This document shows positions 30,435 to 64,000 of a stretch of DNA of 64,000 nucleotides, one piece after another; position 1 is the first letter of the stretch; each line of letters opens with the position of its first letter. The notes below the pieces were generated by a model. It was given only the letters and a program-made list of their open reading frames with translations, did no database searches and had not been told where the DNA came from. The position numbers were made by a program, and so were the translations under genes. The DNA lies in IMG/VR virus record IMGVR_UViG_3300033388_006651, positions 1 through 64,000 of that record. The stretch is one strand, 5' to 3'. Source of the DNA: a virus.

Positions 30435-32063
30435 GTGAGACGACGAAAGAAACAACCTATCCGGGTGACTCAGGGCCTTGCGGCCAGGCGCCGTATGCTG
30501 GCTGGGGTGGCTGAGATGACCCGAGTGGTCGCCGCTACCTACGGACCCCGAGGGCGCACCGTGATGCTGGATCGAGCCGGCGGTGTTCTTTCCACGAAAG
30601 ACGGGGTGTCTGTCGCGTGGGAAATCGAGCCGGCAGACCCGCTCGCACGGCTGGGAACCCGCCTCCTCCAAGAAGCCTGCGACAAGGTCAACAAAGCATG
30701 TGGGGATGGCACGACGACCACTGCGATTTTGGTTCATGCGATCCTCCGACAGAGCCTCAAGTACGTGGCCGCCGGAGAGCACCCAGCTCGGCTTGCCCAG
30801 CACCTTCAACGGATTGCCCAGAGTTTCGAGCACTCCGAGTTATGGGACGTGATGTGCCCCGTTCCCGTCGATAGCGAGCTGCTGATGCGGCAAGTCGCTT
30901 TGACTGCCAGCAACGGAGACGAGGAGATCGCCGACGCCCTTGTGGATGCGTTCGGCCGTGTGGGGTCCGAAGGCATCATCGTGGTCGAGGAGGGGAAGAG
31001 CCGGGGGATCGAGCTCGATCACAAGACCGGGATGGAGATCGAGAAGGGGTGGGAGAGCAGCGATCTCTCTGGCCCTGACGGGGGACCTCGTCACATGGAC
31101 GTGCCGCTGGTTGCGTTGATCGATGCGGAGCTCACGACCTTGAAAGATGTGAGCTCCATCTTGGAGCAGGCTAGTCAGTTCCCGCACCCCCTCATCATCG
31201 TGTCGCGTGGGTGCTTCGCTGACGCGCTCAAGGTGTTGATCGCCAACGACCGGAAACTCGAGCGTGGTGACGGGGGCAAGTTCGAGGTGATCGCTGTTCG
31301 ATGTCCGGGCCATATCGATTTCATGCGTTCCCACCTGGACGACTTGGCTGCGCTCACCGGGGCGACCGTGCTCGACCCTTTGGTGACGCCTCTCGACAAG
31401 TTCACGTCGGAGATGTTGGGGTCGGCCCAGACGGCGACGGTGAAGAAGGAGTCCGCGACGTTTGTGGCGTTCGAGGACAAGTTCCCGCTCATCGAAGCAC
31501 GCGTCGAACAGCTTCAAAAAGAGGACACCGGGTTCAGTCACGACGCCGAAGAAATCCGCACGAGGATCGCAAAGCTGACTGACGGGTTTTGCGTAATGCG
31601 AGTCGGTGGGTGGTCCGAAACGGAACTTCGTGAAAAGCGAGCGAGGATCGAGGACGCGCTGGAGGCCCTTCGTGTGGCCATCGACGAAGGCATCGTTCCC
31701 GGTGCCGGGGTGGCGTACTTGGCGCTCTCGAACTTCCTGGAATTCGCCACGGATGGGCCCGCATCGAAGATACTCCAGGACGCGCTCAGGGAGCCTCTCA
31801 GGACGTTGGCCCGGAATGCGGGCAAGGAGGCACCCGTCGTCCTGCAACGCGTCCTGGAGGCGTCTCAGGAGCCTGGAACTACCAAGGCACTGGCCTCCTG
31901 GGAGGCTGGATGGGATGCCCGCACTGACACTGTGCGGGACCTCCGCGATCTCCCCGTCATCTGTGACCCTTTGGCGGTGGTGAAGGCCACCGTGCTCACG
32001 GCGATTTCGACCGCCTCAACCCTGCTGACCGCCGAGGTTGTGATCACGCGGGTAAACTCGTGA
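30435..32063 (+). CDS. groEL: Phage GroEL-like chaperonin
   Basis: This 542-residue protein matches Hsp60/GroEL along its length (E. coli GroEL is 548). Key ATPase segments are visible: TYGPRGRTVMLD, TKDGVS (Asp 56), GDGTTTT (Asp 91) and the second catalytic region RIEDALEALRVAIDEGIVPGAG with its conserved Asp. The apical domain contains PLIIVSRG and ALTGATVLDP. The C-terminus ends VVITRVNS and lacks the Gly-Gly-Met tail. The usual role is ATP-driven protein folding in the cytoplasm, here probably of phage virion or replication proteins. No groES-like gene is in the window. The GTG start has no clear Shine-Dalgarno, so translation may begin close to the transcript start. Confidence 0.93.
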   Translation: MRRRKKQPIRVTQGLAARRRMLAGVAEMTRVVAATYGPRGRTVMLDRAGGVLSTKDGVSVAWEIEPADPLARLGTRLLQEACDKVNKACGDGTTTTAILVHAILRQSLKYVAAGEHPARLAQHLQRIAQSFEHSELWDVMCPVPVDSELLMRQVALTASNGDEEIADALVDAFGRVGSEGIIVVEEGKSRGIELDHKTGMEIEKGWESSDLSGPDGGPRHMDVPLVALIDAELTTLKDVSSILEQASQFPHPLIIVSRGCFADALKVLIANDRKLERGDGGKFEVIAVRCPGHIDFMRSHLDDLAALTGATVLDPLVTPLDKFTSEMLGSAQTATVKKESATFVAFEDKFPLIEARVEQLQKEDTGFSHDAEEIRTRIAKLTDGFCVMRVGGWSETELREKRARIEDALEALRVAIDEGIVPGAGVAYLALSNFLEFATDGPASKILQDALREPLRTLARNAGKEAPVVLQRVLEASQEPGTTKALASWEAGWDARTDTVRDLRDLPVICDPLAVVKATVLTAISTASTLLTAEVVITRVNS

Positions 32064-32892: not shown

Positions 32893-33575
32893 CTCTTTCC
32901 ACGCTCAGCCCGAATCACGAGAAGGTCGCCTGGGCGTGGCTCGACAACCTGGTGGACAGGGCCCAGCGGGGCCAGAAGCGTCCGCCCACACAAACGGTCC
33001 CTGCGGATCTTCCGCCTGCGGTCAAAATGACGCCGCGCGCACGGGAGCAGTCCGTCCAGGATGCGTACGACGCGACGTTGAAGGTCCTCATCGCGACCAT
33101 CAAGTCGGAGATCGGTGGCATCCAGAGGGCTGAGGCCCAGTTCGCACGCCGAGCTGGCGTAGATCCGCTGTACTTCAACTGGTTCCTCATCAACGGGAAA
33201 CATTGGCCCTCGATGTCGAGAGACGCGAACCGGGCTCTTCGAGCGATCCAGAACATCTACCTGTGGTACGGCGCGGTGCCGAGCCACTGGAACAACATGC
33301 AGATCCCTGAGATGGCTCAGAGCCGTGATCGGGATCGTGAATTTAAAGTTTTCGGCAAATGGTTTTTGCAGTCGGTCATCCCGAAAATCGAACGCAAGTA
33401 CGTTCGTGAAATTTACAAACAGTCGCAGGATTTGGTGAAACAGTTCCGAGGCCAGGGCACCCCGCGTGATCCCAAAGCTGCGATCATGTTGATGCGGGAT
33501 TTCGAGAAACGTCTCGTTGCGGATCGCTTCCAACTCAAGCCCGCGGTTCAAGAAGTCGTCGATCTCTTTTCGTGA
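32889..33575 (+). CDS. Hypothetical protein, helical and basic
   Basis: This 228-residue protein starts at an ATG overlapping the previous stop by 4 nt. It is rich in Lys, Arg, Gln and aromatic residues, with long predicted helices (YDATLKVLIATIKSEIGGIQ, KIERKYVREIYKQSQDLVKQF). It contains no Cys cluster or P-loop. The segment FARRAGVDPLYFNWFLINGKHW is the most distinctive. It sits just before the SNF2 helicase gene and could be a nucleic-acid-associated accessory factor, but this is only inferred from charge and position. Confidence 0.5.
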   Translation: MTLSTLSPNHEKVAWAWLDNLVDRAQRGQKRPPTQTVPADLPPAVKMTPRAREQSVQDAYDATLKVLIATIKSEIGGIQRAEAQFARRAGVDPLYFNWFLINGKHWPSMSRDANRALRAIQNIYLWYGAVPSHWNNMQIPEMAQSRDRDREFKVFGKWFLQSVIPKIERKYVREIYKQSQDLVKQFRGQGTPRDPKAAIMLMRDFEKRLVADRFQLKPAVQEVVDLFS

Positions 33576-33591
33576 GGCGTATAAGTGGGGA

Positions 33592-36500
33592 ATGGATCTG
33601 GACCCGCGCCTCAAGGCAGCTCATGAGCGGCTGAAAGAGATTCGTAACGAAACGAAACTCACCCTCAAGCCAACCCCTTTGCTCAAGACGACCTTCACCG
33701 GGTTCGACGGCGAAGAGCACCCTTTCAACCTGCGGTACTACCAGGTGCAGGGTGTCCTCCACCTGGTGGCGATGAACCGGTTCCTGCTCGGCGACGACAC
33801 CGGCATCGGCAAGTGCGTCGCCCATGACACCCGGATTTTGACCGATCAAGGACTGGTCCCCATCCAGGACCTGTGGGCGGAAGGTCCCTGTGATCTCGAC
33901 AACCACCCCGAACCGGGCACGTTTGTGCCCGCAACGGACCACAAGGTTTGGACAGGCGCGCGGTGGGCGAAGATCAAGTCCTTTTACTATGACGGTGATC
34001 GGCCCACCAAGTACGTCGAGACCCGATACGGGTTCACGGTTGAAGGATCGCATCGCCATCCCATTCTGGTTCGCACGGAAGCAGGAGAAGAATGGCGGCG
34101 CCTTCCTGAAATTCAGGAAGGCGATTACGTTGTCGTCGAACGCCGCAAAGTGCGATGGCCTCAAGAAGCACCGGACCTGACATGGGAGCCCAGTCGAGCA
34201 CCGAACGCCAAGACGTACCCCCTCCCCGCCACACTGACTCCTCGTTACGCGCGATTGCTGGGTTACTTTGTGGCCGAAGGGAACTCCGCTAACCAGTACG
34301 GGTTTACCATCACGCAATACGACACCGAAATTCATGAAGACATCCGGGGGTGTTTGAAAGACGTGTTTGGCTGGGAGGGGAACGAAAACCGCGCCAACCG
34401 AAACGAGGAAATCGTGGTGTCGAGTGTGGTGCTTCGGGATTTTTTGGAGTTCTCCGGGGCAAAACATGTCACCTCGGAAGCCAAGCGGATCCCCTGGTCC
34501 GTCATGCAGGGAACCCAGGACTGTGCCGTGGAATTTCTACGAGGGTTGTTTGAAGGCGATGGGCATGCGCTCGCCATTGGGGGGATCGAATACACCTCCA
34601 AGTCTTTGCAATTAGTACGGGATATCCAGGCCCTTCTGCTTCGATTTGAAATTGTTTCACGAATAGCTGAGAAGGTGATTGATGATGAGTCCTACTGGCG
34701 TATGACCCTTCTTGGTGATGATGGCAGGGTGTTTCGCGATGGCATTGGATTCGTTTCGCGCCGCAAGACCGCTGATCTGCAAGTTGGTCTCGACAAACCC
34801 AGCAACACGAACCACGACATCATCCCTCATGTTGCCCATCTGGTTGGGCCGCTTTACGGAGCCCTGAAAGAAGCAACGCACGTTGGCGGCCCAAACGGGG
34901 CTCGCCAGGGGTCCGGGATCAAGCAGTTTGGAGACAGTTTCCGTAACTCCATCCAGCACGTTTTGGCGGGGCGTCGGAACCTCACGTATCCCAAGCTGCA
35001 AGAGCTTTTGAGCCATGCCGCCGATTTCAATCTCGAGGCCCTCCCAGAGTTCGTAGAGCTTCACCGCATCTCCCAGGACCATCATTTCTACGACCCCGTG
35101 ACATACCTTGACGATGGGGTGTGTCCGCTAATGGACCTGGAGATCGACGCGGAAGAGCACTCGTTCGTCGGCAACGGCATCGTCAACCACAACACGATTC
35201 AAAGTATCGCGGCCCTATGTTTCGTGTGGGCCAAGGACCCGAACATGAAGGCCGTCATCCTCACCAACAAGTCGGTGGTGGGTCAGTGGGCGCTCGAGTT
35301 CGACAAGTTCTGCACGCCGGACAACATCAACGTGATCACCTGCGTGGGCTCACCCACCAAGCGCGAGAAGATCTACAAGGAGTTCGAGGCGTCCACCGGG
35401 CCGACCGTCCTCATCATGGGGTACGCGACCTCTCGTCGGGACATCAAGTTTCTCCAGCACTGGAAGGACTTCGTCCTGATCTGCGACGAGGCCACTGCGT
35501 TCAAGAACCCATCCACGCAGACCTACAAAGTCATCCGTCACCTGTCCCGCAATGCGAGTCGGTTTTGGGCGCTCACCGCGACACTGATCAAGAACAATCT
35601 CATCGAGGGGTTCGCCATCTACTCGCTCCTCATTCCCGGCTTGTTCCCGAGCTCGAAGAACAAGTTCATGATGGAGTACTGCCTCACGCGGTTGCAGCCC
35701 ATCCCGGGTAGTCGCCGACAGATTCCGGTCATCATCGGATACCGCAGCGACCAGATCAAACGGTTCAAGGACAAGATCGATCCGTACTTCCTGTCGCGCG
35801 CCAAGTTCGACGTGGCCAAAGAGCTGCCCGTGCTCCAGATCAAGCAGCACAAGTGCGGCATGACTCGGGCCCAGCAGGCCAAGTACCAGGAGGCCCTCGA
35901 AGGGTTGCTGGAGAAGGACCTCTTGGACGAGGAGGTCGAGACCACGAAGCTCACCGCGCTGATCTACTGCCAGCAAATCGTGGACCATCCTGAGCTTGTT
36001 GACTGCGAAGGCGACAGCGACAAGATGAACGAGCTTTTCACGTTGTTGACCGAGGGGGATCTCGCAGACGAGAAGGTCATCGTGTTCAGCCGGTTCCGCA
36101 AAATGATCGACAAGCTCGAGGAAGTTGCGAGTTCCAAGAAGTACAAGATGAAAACCGTTCGGGTCACCGGGGCCGAAAACGAGGACGAGCGCAAAGCTGC
36201 GATGCAGGCGTTCCAGGACCCGAACTCCGATGTGCGCATCTGCTGGATCACGGAAGCGGCCAAGGAGGGCATCAATCTCCAGGCTGCCAAGGCCCTCGTG
36301 TTCTACGACAGCCCATGGTCTGCGGGAGACTACCTCCAATGTCTTGATGACGACACCGAGATTTTAACCCGGAGGGGGTTCGTGGGGCGCACAGAGATCC
36401 GAAAAGAGGACGAGGTCGCGGCTTTCAACCAGAACACTTCTGAGATTCGGTGGCAAGCCATTCGATCCATTACAGATCGTCCTTTGGCGCAGGGGGAGCA

Positions 36501-37650
36501 GATGTTCGAGATTAACTCTCGGCACCTGAATCTTCGCGTAACAGGGGGACACCGCATGCTTTACAGACGGAAGACACTCAAGGACAAGAAAGCCGTGTGG
36601 CCGGAAGCCTGGAGGATCGAGACTGCTGAGGAGATGGCCTCGGAGAGGTCTCACTACCAAGTTCCAGTCTCGGGTGAGCAGGAGGCCGAAGGACTCCCCC
36701 TTACTGAAGACCAACTTGAGTTTATCGGGTGGGTTCTATCAGATGGATCGCTTAACAAAGCGAACCGGCAACTCGTCATTGCGCAGGCCGTGCATCAGCC
36801 CCAAATTCACGATCTTCGTCATTGTATCCAGAAATGCGGTTTTGACTGGAGCGAGTATGACCGAGACCCTGAAAAGTGTGGGGGATTTCCGAATGGAAAA
36901 CCTCAGATCGTGTTCTCCATCCCGAAAGGCACTCAGGGAGGATCCCGTGCTCGTAACGGGTGGAAAGATCTCGAACCCTACCTGGACAAGGATTTCCCTC
37001 TCCTGTTGGAGAAAGCCACAAACCATCAACTTGCGGCCATGCTTCGAGGACTGCACCTTGGAGATGGCGCCAAATATCGCGGATCAGATTGGACGCAAAG
37101 GTCGTACCACATCTACACAAGTAGAAAGATCTTCGCGGACAGGCTGCAAAGCCTATGCGTGCGGCGAGGCTTCCGATGCAACGTGAGGCACGAAAAAGGA
37201 GGGCCGGGAAAAGCCCGTGAGAAGGACGGGTTTCATCTCCACATCAAGAAAACTAGTTCTTGGTCCCTTTGTGGCAACCTGAAACATGGTGACCGTTCTC
37301 ATCTGACTATTTCCCAAAGTAAACCAGAGGAACGCGTGTGGTGCGTCGAGAATGACATGGGGACCCTGGTCACTCGTCGTGCTGGGAAGGTGGCGGTCGT
37401 TGGAAATTGCTTGGGCCGCATGATCCGCATTGGATCGACACACGACCGCTGTTACGCGATCCACCTCGTAGCCAAGGGCACGATCGACACCAAGGTCATG
37501 GGCGTTCTGCGCACCAAGATGAAGCTCATCGAAGCCGTGATGGGCAAGCGCCTCAAGGGCGAAGGGATGGAGGACGTGGTGGTGTCATCCGACAACAGCA
37601 TCGACGACATTTTCTCGGCCCTCCAGGCGGACGCAAGGAAATACGCATGA
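33592..37650 (+). CDS. SNF2-type DNA helicase containing two inteins
   Basis: The precursor is 1352 residues. Removal of the two inteins leaves about 536, a normal size for a phage SNF2/SF2 helicase. Helicase motifs are clear: Q-like FNLRYYQVQG, Walker A DDTGIGK+T (split by intein 1), Ia KAVILTNKSVVGQW, II ICDEATAFKNP, III ALTATLIKNN, IV KVIVFSRFRKMID, V KEGINLQAAKALVFYD and VI DYLQ+CLGRMIRIGS (split by intein 2). The start chosen is ATG 33592, with GGGGA just upstream, rather than the open frame further 5'. The likely role is ATP-dependent DNA translocation in replication or recombination. It overlaps the next gene by 4 nt. Confidence 0.9.
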   Translation: MDLDPRLKAAHERLKEIRNETKLTLKPTPLLKTTFTGFDGEEHPFNLRYYQVQGVLHLVAMNRFLLGDDTGIGKCVAHDTRILTDQGLVPIQDLWAEGPCDLDNHPEPGTFVPATDHKVWTGARWAKIKSFYYDGDRPTKYVETRYGFTVEGSHRHPILVRTEAGEEWRRLPEIQEGDYVVVERRKVRWPQEAPDLTWEPSRAPNAKTYPLPATLTPRYARLLGYFVAEGNSANQYGFTITQYDTEIHEDIRGCLKDVFGWEGNENRANRNEEIVVSSVVLRDFLEFSGAKHVTSEAKRIPWSVMQGTQDCAVEFLRGLFEGDGHALAIGGIEYTSKSLQLVRDIQALLLRFEIVSRIAEKVIDDESYWRMTLLGDDGRVFRDGIGFVSRRKTADLQVGLDKPSNTNHDIIPHVAHLVGPLYGALKEATHVGGPNGARQGSGIKQFGDSFRNSIQHVLAGRRNLTYPKLQELLSHAADFNLEALPEFVELHRISQDHHFYDPVTYLDDGVCPLMDLEIDAEEHSFVGNGIVNHNTIQSIAALCFVWAKDPNMKAVILTNKSVVGQWALEFDKFCTPDNINVITCVGSPTKREKIYKEFEASTGPTVLIMGYATSRRDIKFLQHWKDFVLICDEATAFKNPSTQTYKVIRHLSRNASRFWALTATLIKNNLIEGFAIYSLLIPGLFPSSKNKFMMEYCLTRLQPIPGSRRQIPVIIGYRSDQIKRFKDKIDPYFLSRAKFDVAKELPVLQIKQHKCGMTRAQQAKYQEALEGLLEKDLLDEEVETTKLTALIYCQQIVDHPELVDCEGDSDKMNELFTLLTEGDLADEKVIVFSRFRKMIDKLEEVASSKKYKMKTVRVTGAENEDERKAAMQAFQDPNSDVRICWITEAAKEGINLQAAKALVFYDSPWSAGDYLQCLDDDTEILTRRGFVGRTEIRKEDEVAAFNQNTSEIRWQAIRSITDRPLAQGEQMFEINSRHLNLRVTGGHRMLYRRKTLKDKKAVWPEAWRIETAEEMASERSHYQVPVSGEQEAEGLPLTEDQLEFIGWVLSDGSLNKANRQLVIAQAVHQPQIHDLRHCIQKCGFDWSEYDRDPEKCGGFPNGKPQIVFSIPKGTQGGSRARNGWKDLEPYLDKDFPLLLEKATNHQLAAMLRGLHLGDGAKYRGSDWTQRSYHIYTSRKIFADRLQSLCVRRGFRCNVRHEKGGPGKAREKDGFHLHIKKTSSWSLCGNLKHGDRSHLTISQSKPEERVWCVENDMGTLVTRRAGKVAVVGNCLGRMIRIGSTHDRCYAIHLVAKGTIDTKVMGVLRTKMKLIEAVMGKRLKGEGMEDVVVSSDNSIDDIFSALQADARKYA
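33814..35193 (+). other. Intein 1 in the Walker A motif of the helicase (460 residues)
   Basis: The insert begins at Cys (CVAHDTRILTDQG) right after DDTGIGK and ends in HN, followed by Thr as the +1 residue. Splicing therefore rebuilds GIGKT. The block-B histidine is in EGSHRHPIL. A LAGLIDADG homing domain is embedded, with motifs LLGYFVAEGN and FLRGLFEGDGHA. All splice-junction residues of a class 1 intein are present, so self-splicing is expected. The helicase cannot bind ATP until splicing occurs. Confidence 0.9.
36340..37407 (+). other. Intein 2 in motif VI of the helicase (356 residues)
   Basis: The insert begins at Cys (CLDDDTEILTRRG) after SAGDYLQ and ends VVGN, followed by Cys +1 of CLGRMIRIGS. 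The penultimate residue is Gly rather than the usual His, as in some active inteins. The block-B histidine is in RVTGGHRML. LAGLIDADG motifs FIGWVLSDGS and MLRGLHLGDGA are present; the second has a less usual sequence. Motif VI holds the arginine finger, so splicing is needed for helicase function. Confidence 0.88.
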
Positions 37651-62435: not shown

Positions 62436-62964
62436 CACCCCGGATACCGTCCTCGACCTGTGCGAAGGCGAGGCGTCTTTCTTGACGGCCCCGGTGAACA
62501 ACCGGTTCGACGCGTACCGGGAGTACGAAGTGCTGTGGAAGTATCCGCACCGCTTTGGGGGCTACCGTCGGGGGCTGTGGGAGAAGCTCAGGGACTACAT
62601 CGACACGGGGGTGCGGTGGGGCAACGTCCACGATCTGTTCCAAGCCATGACTTTCCTTGGAGGCGACTGGGTTCCCTTTGACATGCCTGCTGCCAAAAAG
62701 ACGTGGGGATGGTCTCGTCCGGACGGCACCGATCGTCAGAGCGTGCTGATCGACATGGTCAAAGAGGGATGGCACGGCACCCGCCAGGACTTTCGCCGGA
62801 ACTGGCACGAGGAAGGTCCCTTGCGCCCTCTGATCGAAACACCAGAGGGACGCAAGGAGATCGCACGCATGTTGACGACAGGCGATCACTGTCTTGAGTT
62901 CAAGGATGGCGAGTTCGTTCCCGCCATCCTCCGACACCTGGGTTACCAGAGCTCGCTGAGGTGA
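62419..62964 (+). CDS. Hypothetical protein, 181 residues
   Basis: It starts inside the preceding gene (17-nt overlap). It contains FDAYREYEVLWKYPHRFGGYRRGLW, GNVHDLFQAMTFLGGDW and REEGPLRPL-like segments. It is Trp/Arg rich, with no Cys cluster or membrane span. Its end overlaps by 22 nt, tail to tail, with the release-factor gene on the other strand. Function unknown. Confidence 0.45.
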   Translation: MLNLNDTPDTVLDLCEGEASFLTAPVNNRFDAYREYEVLWKYPHRFGGYRRGLWEKLRDYIDTGVRWGNVHDLFQAMTFLGGDWVPFDMPAAKKTWGWSRPDGTDRQSVLIDMVKEGWHGTRQDFRRNWHEEGPLRPLIETPEGRKEIARMLTTGDHCLEFKDGEFVPAILRHLGYQSSLR

Positions 62965-63621
62965 CCCCTCATGTAGAGCTTGGCTCGCATTGTCTTGTCC
63001 GTGTTGTGGTCGTGGACGGTGTCGCGTTGGATGGCGATTGTCCGGACCTTGTCCCCTCGAGCTCCACCACCGATCTGCTTGCGCCGCTTGGAGTTCCGCT
63101 CTTTGACGCGCTTGGTGGTGCCGGCAACCAGCAGTCGAGCCCGTAGGACCTCTCGTGCTGTCTGTCGGTTGATGGGCTGGCTCCGGCCGCCGTCGACCCG
63201 AACTTTGATGCCCGAGGGCCTGTGGACCAGGATGACGCAGGTATCGGTTTTGTTCCGATGCTGGCCGCCGGGCCCACTGCCGCGAGTGAAGGACTCATCC
63301 AGATCGCGCTCGTCGAGCTCGACCTCGTGGGCCTTCGGTTCTTGCAGGACCGCGACCGTCACCGTGCTGGTGTGGACGCGACCTCGCTTTTCGTTGGGTG
63401 GTACGCGTTGGAAACGGTGACCGCCTGCTTCGTGGCAGAACGCAATGTCAGCGTTCTTGCCGGAGATGCGCATCAGCAAAAAGCCGGCGCGCTCCTCTAG
63501 CAGTTCGTGGTCAAAGGTGCTCCAAAGAACAGTACCGGGTGTAGATGCGATACTGTTCCTGGACCAGATTTTTGGCGTCTTCGCCGCCTTCTGCGGCACG
63601 AATTTCTACGAGAATGCTCAT
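62943..63621 (-). CDS. Phage release factor expressed by a +1 programmed frameshift
   Basis: The first frame starts at ATG 63621 and reads MSILVEIRAAEGGEDAKN, ending after 36 codons in CTT TGA. If translation slips +1 at CTT, reading GAC next and skipping base 63513, it continues as LDHELLEERAGFLLMRISGKN to a stop at 62943, giving about 225 residues. The second frame contains release-factor domain segments HEAGGHRFQRVP, GRVHTSTVTVAV and the peptide-release motif GSGPGGQHRNKTD. The N-terminal domain 1 of RF1/RF2 is missing. The discriminator tripeptide is PPN, where RF1 has PxT. Role: stop-codon-dependent peptide release, likely to tune termination in the infected cell. Confidence 0.9.
63511..63523 (-). 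promoter_or_regulatory. RF2-type +1 programmed frameshift signal
   Basis: On the minus strand: GGAG (63523-63520), CAC spacer, CTT, TGA, then C. E. coli prfB has AGGGGG, 3 nt, CTT TGA C. The internal Shine-Dalgarno and spacer are therefore matched exactly. Low release activity at UGA should favour slippage. Confidence 0.85.
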
Positions 63622-64000
63622 GACTACTGTCTCTTTCAGCCCCGAACAGCATCGCTTTGGCAAGCTCTGCAAACGAGGACACGGTTACGAGGATACTGGA
63701 AAAAGTCTTCGGTTCAAATCGAACGGAAGTTGTGTGATGTGTGTCCGGGAATCGAGCGCTCAGTACCACCAGGAGCACAAGGACGAGATCCACGCTCGGG
63801 CAAAAGGGTGGCGTGCTGAGAACAAAGAATTTCTTCGTGAGAAGATGAAAGGGTACGAGAAACAGTACGGGAAGACCAAACGGGGACAGGAGGTCCGCCT
63901 TCGAGCTCGAAGATCACGGAAAGCCGAGGGACGGGATAAGATCACCCGCGATAAATACCGTCGAACCAAAAAAGGCCGTGAGTCTCAGCGCCGGTGTAAT
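63614..64000 (+). CDS. Zinc-finger protein of HNH-homing type, N-terminal part
   Basis: The frame is open from ATG 63614 (or 63620) to the window end, 129 codons. It reads LCKRGHGYEDTG then SCVMCVRESS, a Cys-rich finger (Cys-x4-Tyr-type), followed by strongly basic helices (YHQEHKDEIHARAKGW, RKAEGRDKITRDKYRR). The pattern resembles the N-terminus of phage HNH homing endonucleases, as at 9079, where the nuclease unit comes last. The nuclease part would be beyond the window. The second ATG shares the palindrome CATG (63619-63622) with the reverse release-factor start. Confidence 0.6.
   Translation, partial: MLMTTVSFSPEQHRFGKLCKRGHGYEDTGKSLRFKSNGSCVMCVRESSAQYHQEHKDEIHARAKGWRAENKEFLREKMKGYEKQYGKTKRGQEVRLRARRSRKAEGRDKITRDKYRRTKKGRESQRRCN

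What the first reader, a model, noticed from the sequence alone, without database searches (positions are those of the whole stretch)
62943..63621. Phage release factor with an RF2-style autoregulatory +1 frameshift
The reverse-strand gene is split into a 36-codon first frame (MSILVEIRAAEGGED...) and a second frame carrying the GGQ release domain. They meet at GGAG-CAC-CTT-TGA-C, identical in layout to the bacterial prfB signal: internal Shine-Dalgarno, 3-nt spacer, CUU UGA C. Joining them yields a seamless domain (LDHELLEER). A phage that carries its own release factor and has kept the feedback switch would be able to sense host termination capacity.
Basis: partly seen in the sequence, partly recalled or inferred. 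Interest (0 to 1): 0.95.

Follow-up and report, generated by a model that had tools for sequence, protein, structure and literature searches.

The report
Phage release factors behind leaky stops
A virus of bacteria carries its own gene for a protein that ends protein synthesis, and the gene is interrupted by a stop signal that ribosomes must slip past; hundreds of related phage and some soil-bacterial genes share this, which suggests the protein is made mainly when stopping is failing.

Summary
On the minus strand (63621-62943) a 36-codon frame meets the GGQ frame at GGAG-CAC-CTT-TGA-C; fused, they give a 225-residue class-I release factor without domain 1. Relatives rule out sequencing error. 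In 107 of 108 distinct frameshifted relatives (phages, and chromosomes of Nannocystis, Minicystis and Archangium) the shift is at CTT+stop: TGA 84, TAG 21, TAA 2; the other combines readthrough with a CTT-TAG-C shift. Most have a Shine-Dalgarno 2-3 nt upstream. Another 150 relatives have one or two in-frame stops, nearly all UGA, mostly where ordinary RF1 has a near-invariant Trp; many also carry a downstream RNA hairpin. About 95% of fetched members (258/271) need recoding. Sampled carriers use the standard code.

The mechanism is RF2-like, but the protein is RF1-type (Q71, P74, usually T76), so UGA should not be its own codon. The site lies in domain 2, not before domain 1 as in prfB, so it looks convergent. 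Gate stops switch UGA/UAG repeatedly without change in the decoding motif. Best reading: a backup RF made when host termination is slow. Sensing is inferred, not shown. No earlier description turned up in the literature searched.

The parts
63511..63621 (-). 0-frame ORF: 36 codons (MSILVEIRAAEGGEDAKNLVQEQYRIYTRYCSLEHL) plus UGA stop; holds the conserved GG tip (residues 12-13) of domain 2
   Evidence: G12 and G13 invariant in 47 relatives
63520..63523 (-). internal Shine-Dalgarno-like GGAG, 3 nt upstream of CTT
   Evidence: SD-like at this spacing in 92 of 107 relatives
63511..63516 (-). shift site CTT TGA (followed by C at 63510)
   Evidence: CTT in 107 of 108 distinct frameshifted loci
62943..63512 (-). 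+1-frame ORF from GAC to TAA: rest of domain 2, GGQ domain and C-terminal part
62943..63621 (-). whole recoded gene, fused product P0001, 225 aa, domain-1-less RF1-type release factor (phrog_19918)
   Evidence: NCBIfam prfA 192 bits, prfB 127, prfH 71 (none reaches its cut-off); closest solved structure RF1 2fvo
63393..63401 (-). decoding tripeptide P-P-N (RF1 P-x-T position)
63261..63269 (-). catalytic GGQ motif

Best explanation
The gene encodes a domain-1-less, RF1-type class-I release factor that can be made in full only if ribosomes slip +1 from CUU to UUU at an internal UGA, helped by a Shine-Dalgarno-like GGAG three bases upstream (frameshift shown by comparison, not by experiment). Slippage at such sites rises when the stop is served slowly, so the factor should appear when termination is limiting, for example late in infection, and should supply extra termination or rescue capacity to a phage that also carries its own tRNAs (inferred). 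What is conserved is a leaky stop in this region: relatives use UGA, UAG or rarely UAA with a frameshift, or in-frame UGA readthrough (probably as Trp), often with a downstream hairpin, or two stops in series. In UGA-gated members the factor probably does not read its own gate, so it would monitor the host's RF2 step; in UAG-gated members the same layout could be true feedback (inferred).
For: 107 of 108 distinct +1-shift loci have CTT before the stop (TGA 84, TAG 21, TAA 2), +4 base C in 81, SD-like sequence in 92. A further 133 loci have one in-frame stop (TGA in 131) and 17 have two. 113 of these stops lie in one alignment column where ordinary RF1 has Trp in 40 of 44. +4 U, the strong-termination context, occurs in 1 of 107 shifts and 1 of 133 readthrough sites (about 1e-8 at a 15% rate for the latter, loci treated as independent). 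Readthrough members have a protein-preserving RNA-fold signal just downstream (mean z -1.83 over 32 cluster representatives, p 2e-7; 23 other single-stop members -1.5), shift members none (-0.03), ordinary RF1 -0.24. Terminase, RecA-type and helicase genes found in these records have no internal stops. RF1-type residues are alike in UGA- and UAG-gated members, and the gate stop changes about 17 times by parsimony on the tree. The gene sits beside four tRNA-Lys genes on the same strand in this phage, near tRNAs in many relatives and next to a tmRNA in L109. A model of a TGA=W product (L158) has mean pLDDT 91.8 and matches ribosome-bound RF1, TM 0.91.
Against: No expression, proteomic or reporter data; sensing, timing and benefit are inferred. 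The window's own tripeptide is PPN, not PxT, so its codon specificity is uncertain. An RF1-type factor would not relieve poor UGA termination directly. 13 of 271 short members are open in a single frame, so the gate can be lost. 15 of 107 shift sites lack an obvious SD. The hairpin is not seen in every readthrough member.
Confidence: 0.72

Rival explanations
1. Classical autoregulation as in prfB: the factor recognises its own gate stop (UGA as well as UAA/UAG), so abundance of the factor shuts off its own synthesis.
For: Same site layout as prfB. UAG-gated members (21 of 107 shifts) fit RF1-type feedback directly. The PPN/PPT tripeptide and the K/R-R/K that follows differ from ordinary RF1, so altered specificity is possible.
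Against: Q71 in 100% of shift members and P74 in 88-96% are RF1-like (RF2: V and S), and residue frequencies are similar in UGA- and UAG-gated members although the gate switches repeatedly.
Confidence: 0.25
2. Fixed attenuation: the leaky stop only sets a low dose of a protein that is toxic in excess, without sensing.
For: Release-factor overexpression slows growth (PMC12421855). Mechanism, stop identity and position are interchangeable while leakiness is kept; two stops in series occur (17 loci).
Against: A weak start codon or weak SD would be simpler. Repeated choice of termination-coupled devices, one with efficient RF2-type stimulators, argues for coupling.
Confidence: 0.22
3. Sequencing error or decaying gene.
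For: Ordinary default for split genes; a Nannocystis pusilla locus (L207) looks error-affected.
Against: Over 250 distinct loci carry internal stops, GGQ is invariant, and the stops have specific non-coding stimulators. Complete chromosomes of cultured strains carry it.
Confidence: 0.01
4. The carriers use a reassigned code or selenocysteine, so the in-frame UGA is ordinary.
For: UGA is in-frame in 131 single-stop loci; downstream hairpins resemble SECIS in placement.
Against: No internal stops in terminase, RecA-type or helicase genes found. No SelB above its cut-off in 24 records. RF1 has Trp in that column. Does not explain frameshift members. The tRNA-Sec search was uninformative because it cross-reacts with other tRNAs.
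Confidence: 0.02
5. Split gene: the GGQ frame is translated from an internal start as a separate ArfB-like rescue protein.
For: The GGQ frame of the window is open upstream to a GTG at 63599.
Against: The first frame holds conserved domain-2 residues (E6, G12, G13, D15 invariant in 47). The upstream reach of the +1 frame varies widely (7-44 codons). CTT, SD and +4 context would not be conserved.
Confidence: 0.03

Closest known systems
Bacterial prfB (RF2) programmed +1 frameshift
   Same: SD-like element, 3-nt spacer, CUU, stop codon, C; +1 slip at a stop codon; class-I release factor
   Different: Here RF1-type, no domain 1, site in domain 2 (codon 36), stop often UAG; prfB has 0 UAG in 8,164 motifs and prfA has no programmed frameshift (PMC12421855)
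Mimivirus R726 / Megavirus mg280 class-I release factor
   Same: Virus-encoded RF gated by UGA-C readthrough followed by CUU UAG C / CUU UAA C frameshift (PMC3521657); L325 here combines the same two events
   Different: That is a eukaryotic/archaeal-type eRF1 of amoeba viruses; this is a bacterial RF1-type family in phages and bacteria, usually with one event, convergent
PrfH (RFH) with RtcB
   Same: Domain-1-less class-I RF in bacteria with RF1 and RF2
   Different: PrfH tripeptide differs and PrfH pairs with RtcB. Nannocystis carries an RtcB-adjacent RF-1-domain gene as well as this one. No RtcB in the window's genome
RF1/RF2 reported in huge phages (PMC7162821)
   Same: Phage-encoded release factors; huge-phage records LR745206, LR745208, LR756501, LR756502 and LR756504 hold recoded members
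   Different: Recoding is not mentioned there: 'frameshift' does not occur in its main text
ArfA
   Same: Synthesis of a rescue factor depends on failure of the process it backs up (PMC8012679)
   Different: Truncated mRNA and tmRNA, not stop-codon recoding

Membership tests
prfB-type programmed +1 frameshift | SD-like element 3 nt upstream, CUU, stop, weak +4 base | tested here: met
prfB-type programmed +1 frameshift | gate stop is one read by the encoded factor (autoregulation) | tested here: inconclusive
RF2 | SPF/SPY tripeptide and Val at the RF1 Gln position | tested here: not met
   P-P-N and Q71; NCBIfam prfA 192 > prfB 127 bits
RF1 | PxT and conserved Gln, GGQ | tested here: inconclusive
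   Gln71 and GGQ present; family mostly P-P-T, but the window has P-P-N
RF1 | domain 1 present; full-length prfA model cut-off reached | tested here: not met
   Starts at profile position about 105; 192 of 400 bits needed
PrfH | match to prfH model above cut-off, RtcB partner | tested here: not met
   71 of 167 bits; no RtcB in G000
Recoding-gated viral RF (mimivirus type) | viral class-I RF needing frameshift and/or readthrough | tested here: met
Recoding-gated viral RF (mimivirus type) | eRF1 homology | tested here: not met
   bacterial RF1 homolog
Termination-failure sensor | output rises when termination is slow | not testable with these tools
   needs a reporter assay

The most novel reading that the evidence does not exclude
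A large family of phage and bacterial release factors, on the RF1 side, in which the conserved feature is a leaky stop in domain 2; +1 frameshift and UGA-Trp readthrough interchange, with UGA or UAG as gate and mechanism-specific stimulators (SD for the shift, a hairpin for many readthrough sites), making a termination-failure-induced backup release factor. This would include the in-frame-UGA readthrough RF gene and the RF1/UAG counterpart that the 2016 review PMC5009743 lists as unknown in bacteria.
Probability: 0.65. Interest if true: 0.92.

Novelty: new variant of a known kind. Interest (0 to 1): 0.86.

Why it matters
Recoding control of release factors has been thought confined to RF2 and to giant-virus eRF1. 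Here a further bacterial-type release factor carries it in phages, up to the 735-kb record LR756501, and in cultured myxobacteria. Two different recoding mechanisms at homologous positions offer a natural experiment on what is selected, and a handle on whether phages monitor host termination. It also means such genes are easily missed or called pseudogenes.

Tried and rejected
Reassigned genetic code: rejected for the records with a hit. Selenocysteine: no SelB above cut-off; the tRNA-Sec search cross-reacts with other tRNAs and is uninformative. PrfH/RtcB: separate gene, no RtcB in G000. Conserved downstream hairpin in frameshift members: none. One consensus structure for the readthrough hairpin: RNAalifold found none over the mixed set and only a weak 4-bp stem otherwise; a stem taken from one member pairs in 70% of cells against 64% (sd 1) for synonymous-codon shuffles, a test that does not remove relatedness. 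The larger z of -3.26 came from 52 related sequences of one clade, so the cluster-representative value is reported. Co-variation of the decoding motif with the gate stop: none seen.

Full report
CHECK. The finding's coordinates and layout are correct. The minus strand has a 36-codon 0-frame ending CTT TGA C, with GGAG three bases before CTT; the +1 frame continues to TAA at 62943. Pfam PCRF hits the two frames at consecutive parts of its profile, and the fused 225-residue product matches PCRF and RF-1, phrog_19918 and RF1 better than RF2 or PrfH, starting at profile position about 105, so domain 1 is absent. Solved-structure search gives RF1 first; in that alignment residue 36, the CUU Leu, pairs with the Trp of RF1. 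The motif by itself is not rare enough to convince (0.27 expected in the window), although the stricter form occurs once in the whole 146.8-kb genome.

RELATIVES. Six scans of IMG/VR, one of genome contigs and the INPHARED search gave 519 loci, 329 distinct by the GGQ reading frame. Apart from 40 classed as full-length factors (nearly all ordinary RF1, one RF2), two RF1 fragments, the error-affected L207 and 15 loci without a recognisable N-terminus (12 of them distant GGQ-domain relatives), there are 271 short members; 258 need recoding and 13 are open in one frame. Of 108 needing a +1 shift, 107 have CTT before the stop: TGA 84, TAG 21, TAA 2; +4 is C in 81 and U in 1; 92 have SD-like sequence at the RF2 position. 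L325 has an in-frame UGA followed by CTT TAG C. Another 133 have one in-frame stop (TGA 131, TAG 2) and 17 have two, including the 634- and 735-kb phage records LR745206 and LR756501. The sample is biased towards relatives of the queries, though one query alignment (A6) was made only of single-frame members.

READTHROUGH MEMBERS. 113 of the stops lie in the alignment column where 40 of 44 ordinary RF1s have Trp, usually after a Gly codon and before A, the context in which UGA is misread by tRNA-Trp (PMC5289835). Terminase, RecA-type and helicase genes found in these records are uninterrupted, so UGA is not generally reassigned in the records with a hit. Keeping the protein and the gene's own codons, RNA folding in the 66 bases starting two codons after the stop is stronger than shuffled (mean z -1.83, 32 cluster representatives, p 2e-7; other single-stop members -1.5, p 5e-6), and is absent in frameshift members (-0.03) and ordinary RF1 (-0.24). 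Some members show no signal, and base pairs could not be fixed to one consensus. A TGA=W product was modelled with mean pLDDT 91.8, top match ribosome-bound RF1, TM 0.91.

DESCENT AND SPECIFICITY. A quick maximum-likelihood tree places the family in one branch (SH-aLRT 99) apart from RF2 and next to RF1; PrfH and two divergent members are long branches of unsure place. On that tree the gate stop of shift members changes 17 times, with at least 5 changes for UAG forced by starred branches. RF1-type Gln71 and Pro74, and Thr or Asn at 76, are found alike in UGA- and UAG-gated members. Bacteria of this group that carry the gene also have RF1 and RF2, and their prfB genes keep the canonical frameshift site before domain 1. 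Hence the site here was not inherited from prfB in any simple way; convergence is the likeliest account (inference). Nannocystis also has an RtcB-adjacent PrfH-like gene, so this family is separate from PrfH.

SETTING. In this phage four tRNA-Lys genes lie just beyond the window on the same strand, the first of 20 tRNA genes within about 23 kb; relatives L004 and L005 also have tRNA-Lys genes nearby, L018 has 33 tRNA genes, and L109 has a tmRNA overlapping the end of the gene. A chaperonin GroEL, DNA polymerase A, DnaB-like helicase and NAD-dependent ligase fit a phage genome.

MECHANISM. Shown by comparison: an internal stop that must be bypassed, of two mechanistic kinds, under selection for poor termination context and mechanism-specific stimulators. 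Inferred: that output rises when termination is slow, that the factor adds termination or rescue capacity, and that UGA-gated members therefore monitor RF2 without being read by their own product. Autoregulation in the strict sense is possible for UAG-gated members and would need altered specificity in UGA-gated ones. Fixed low dose is the main rival without sensing.

KNOWN BEFORE. prfB frameshifting is classical; a survey of 8,164 motifs found no UAG and no programmed frameshift in prfA (PMC12421855). A 2016 review states that readthrough-gated RF2 genes and a UAG/RF1 counterpart were unknown, with a giant-virus eRF1 the only related case (PMC5009743; PMC3521657). Huge phages are reported to carry RF1 and RF2 (PMC7162821). 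A frameshift survey of 1,106 prokaryote genomes reports prfB; prfA and RF1 do not occur in its main text (PMC3711429). Nothing describing this family was found in the open-access library searched; preprints and most subscription papers are not held.

Noticed in passing
window 33517-37650: SNF2-type helicase ORF carrying a LAGLIDADG domain and weak intein/Hint hits, probably an intein.
   Followed up: no
window 30435-32063: Phage-encoded chaperonin GroEL.
   Followed up: no
window 63611-63640: The RF start codon and an ATG of the divergent plus-strand ORF share CATG, so the RF has no upstream intergenic region; the neighbouring protein has no Pfam hit.
   Followed up: partly
L325 around 2100-2170: Release factor with UGA readthrough followed by CTT TAG C frameshift, the same combination as in mimivirus R726.
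   Followed up: partly
L274, L277, L096, L100, L104, L113 and 11 more: Two in-frame stops about 8-13 codons apart in one release-factor gene, including the 735-kb phage record LR756501.
   Followed up: partly
L018, L019, L021: Divergent short members with the shift site at codon about 22 instead of 36; the L018 locus holds 33 tRNA genes.
   Followed up: no
L109 3660-4173: tmRNA gene directly downstream of, and overlapping the end of, a readthrough-gated release factor.
   Followed up: no
INPHARED records such as OR846590, CAKLQH020000004: Records labelled as phage hold full-length bacterial-type RF1 or RF2, with bacterial neighbours in the annotated ones, so probably host contamination.
   Followed up: partly
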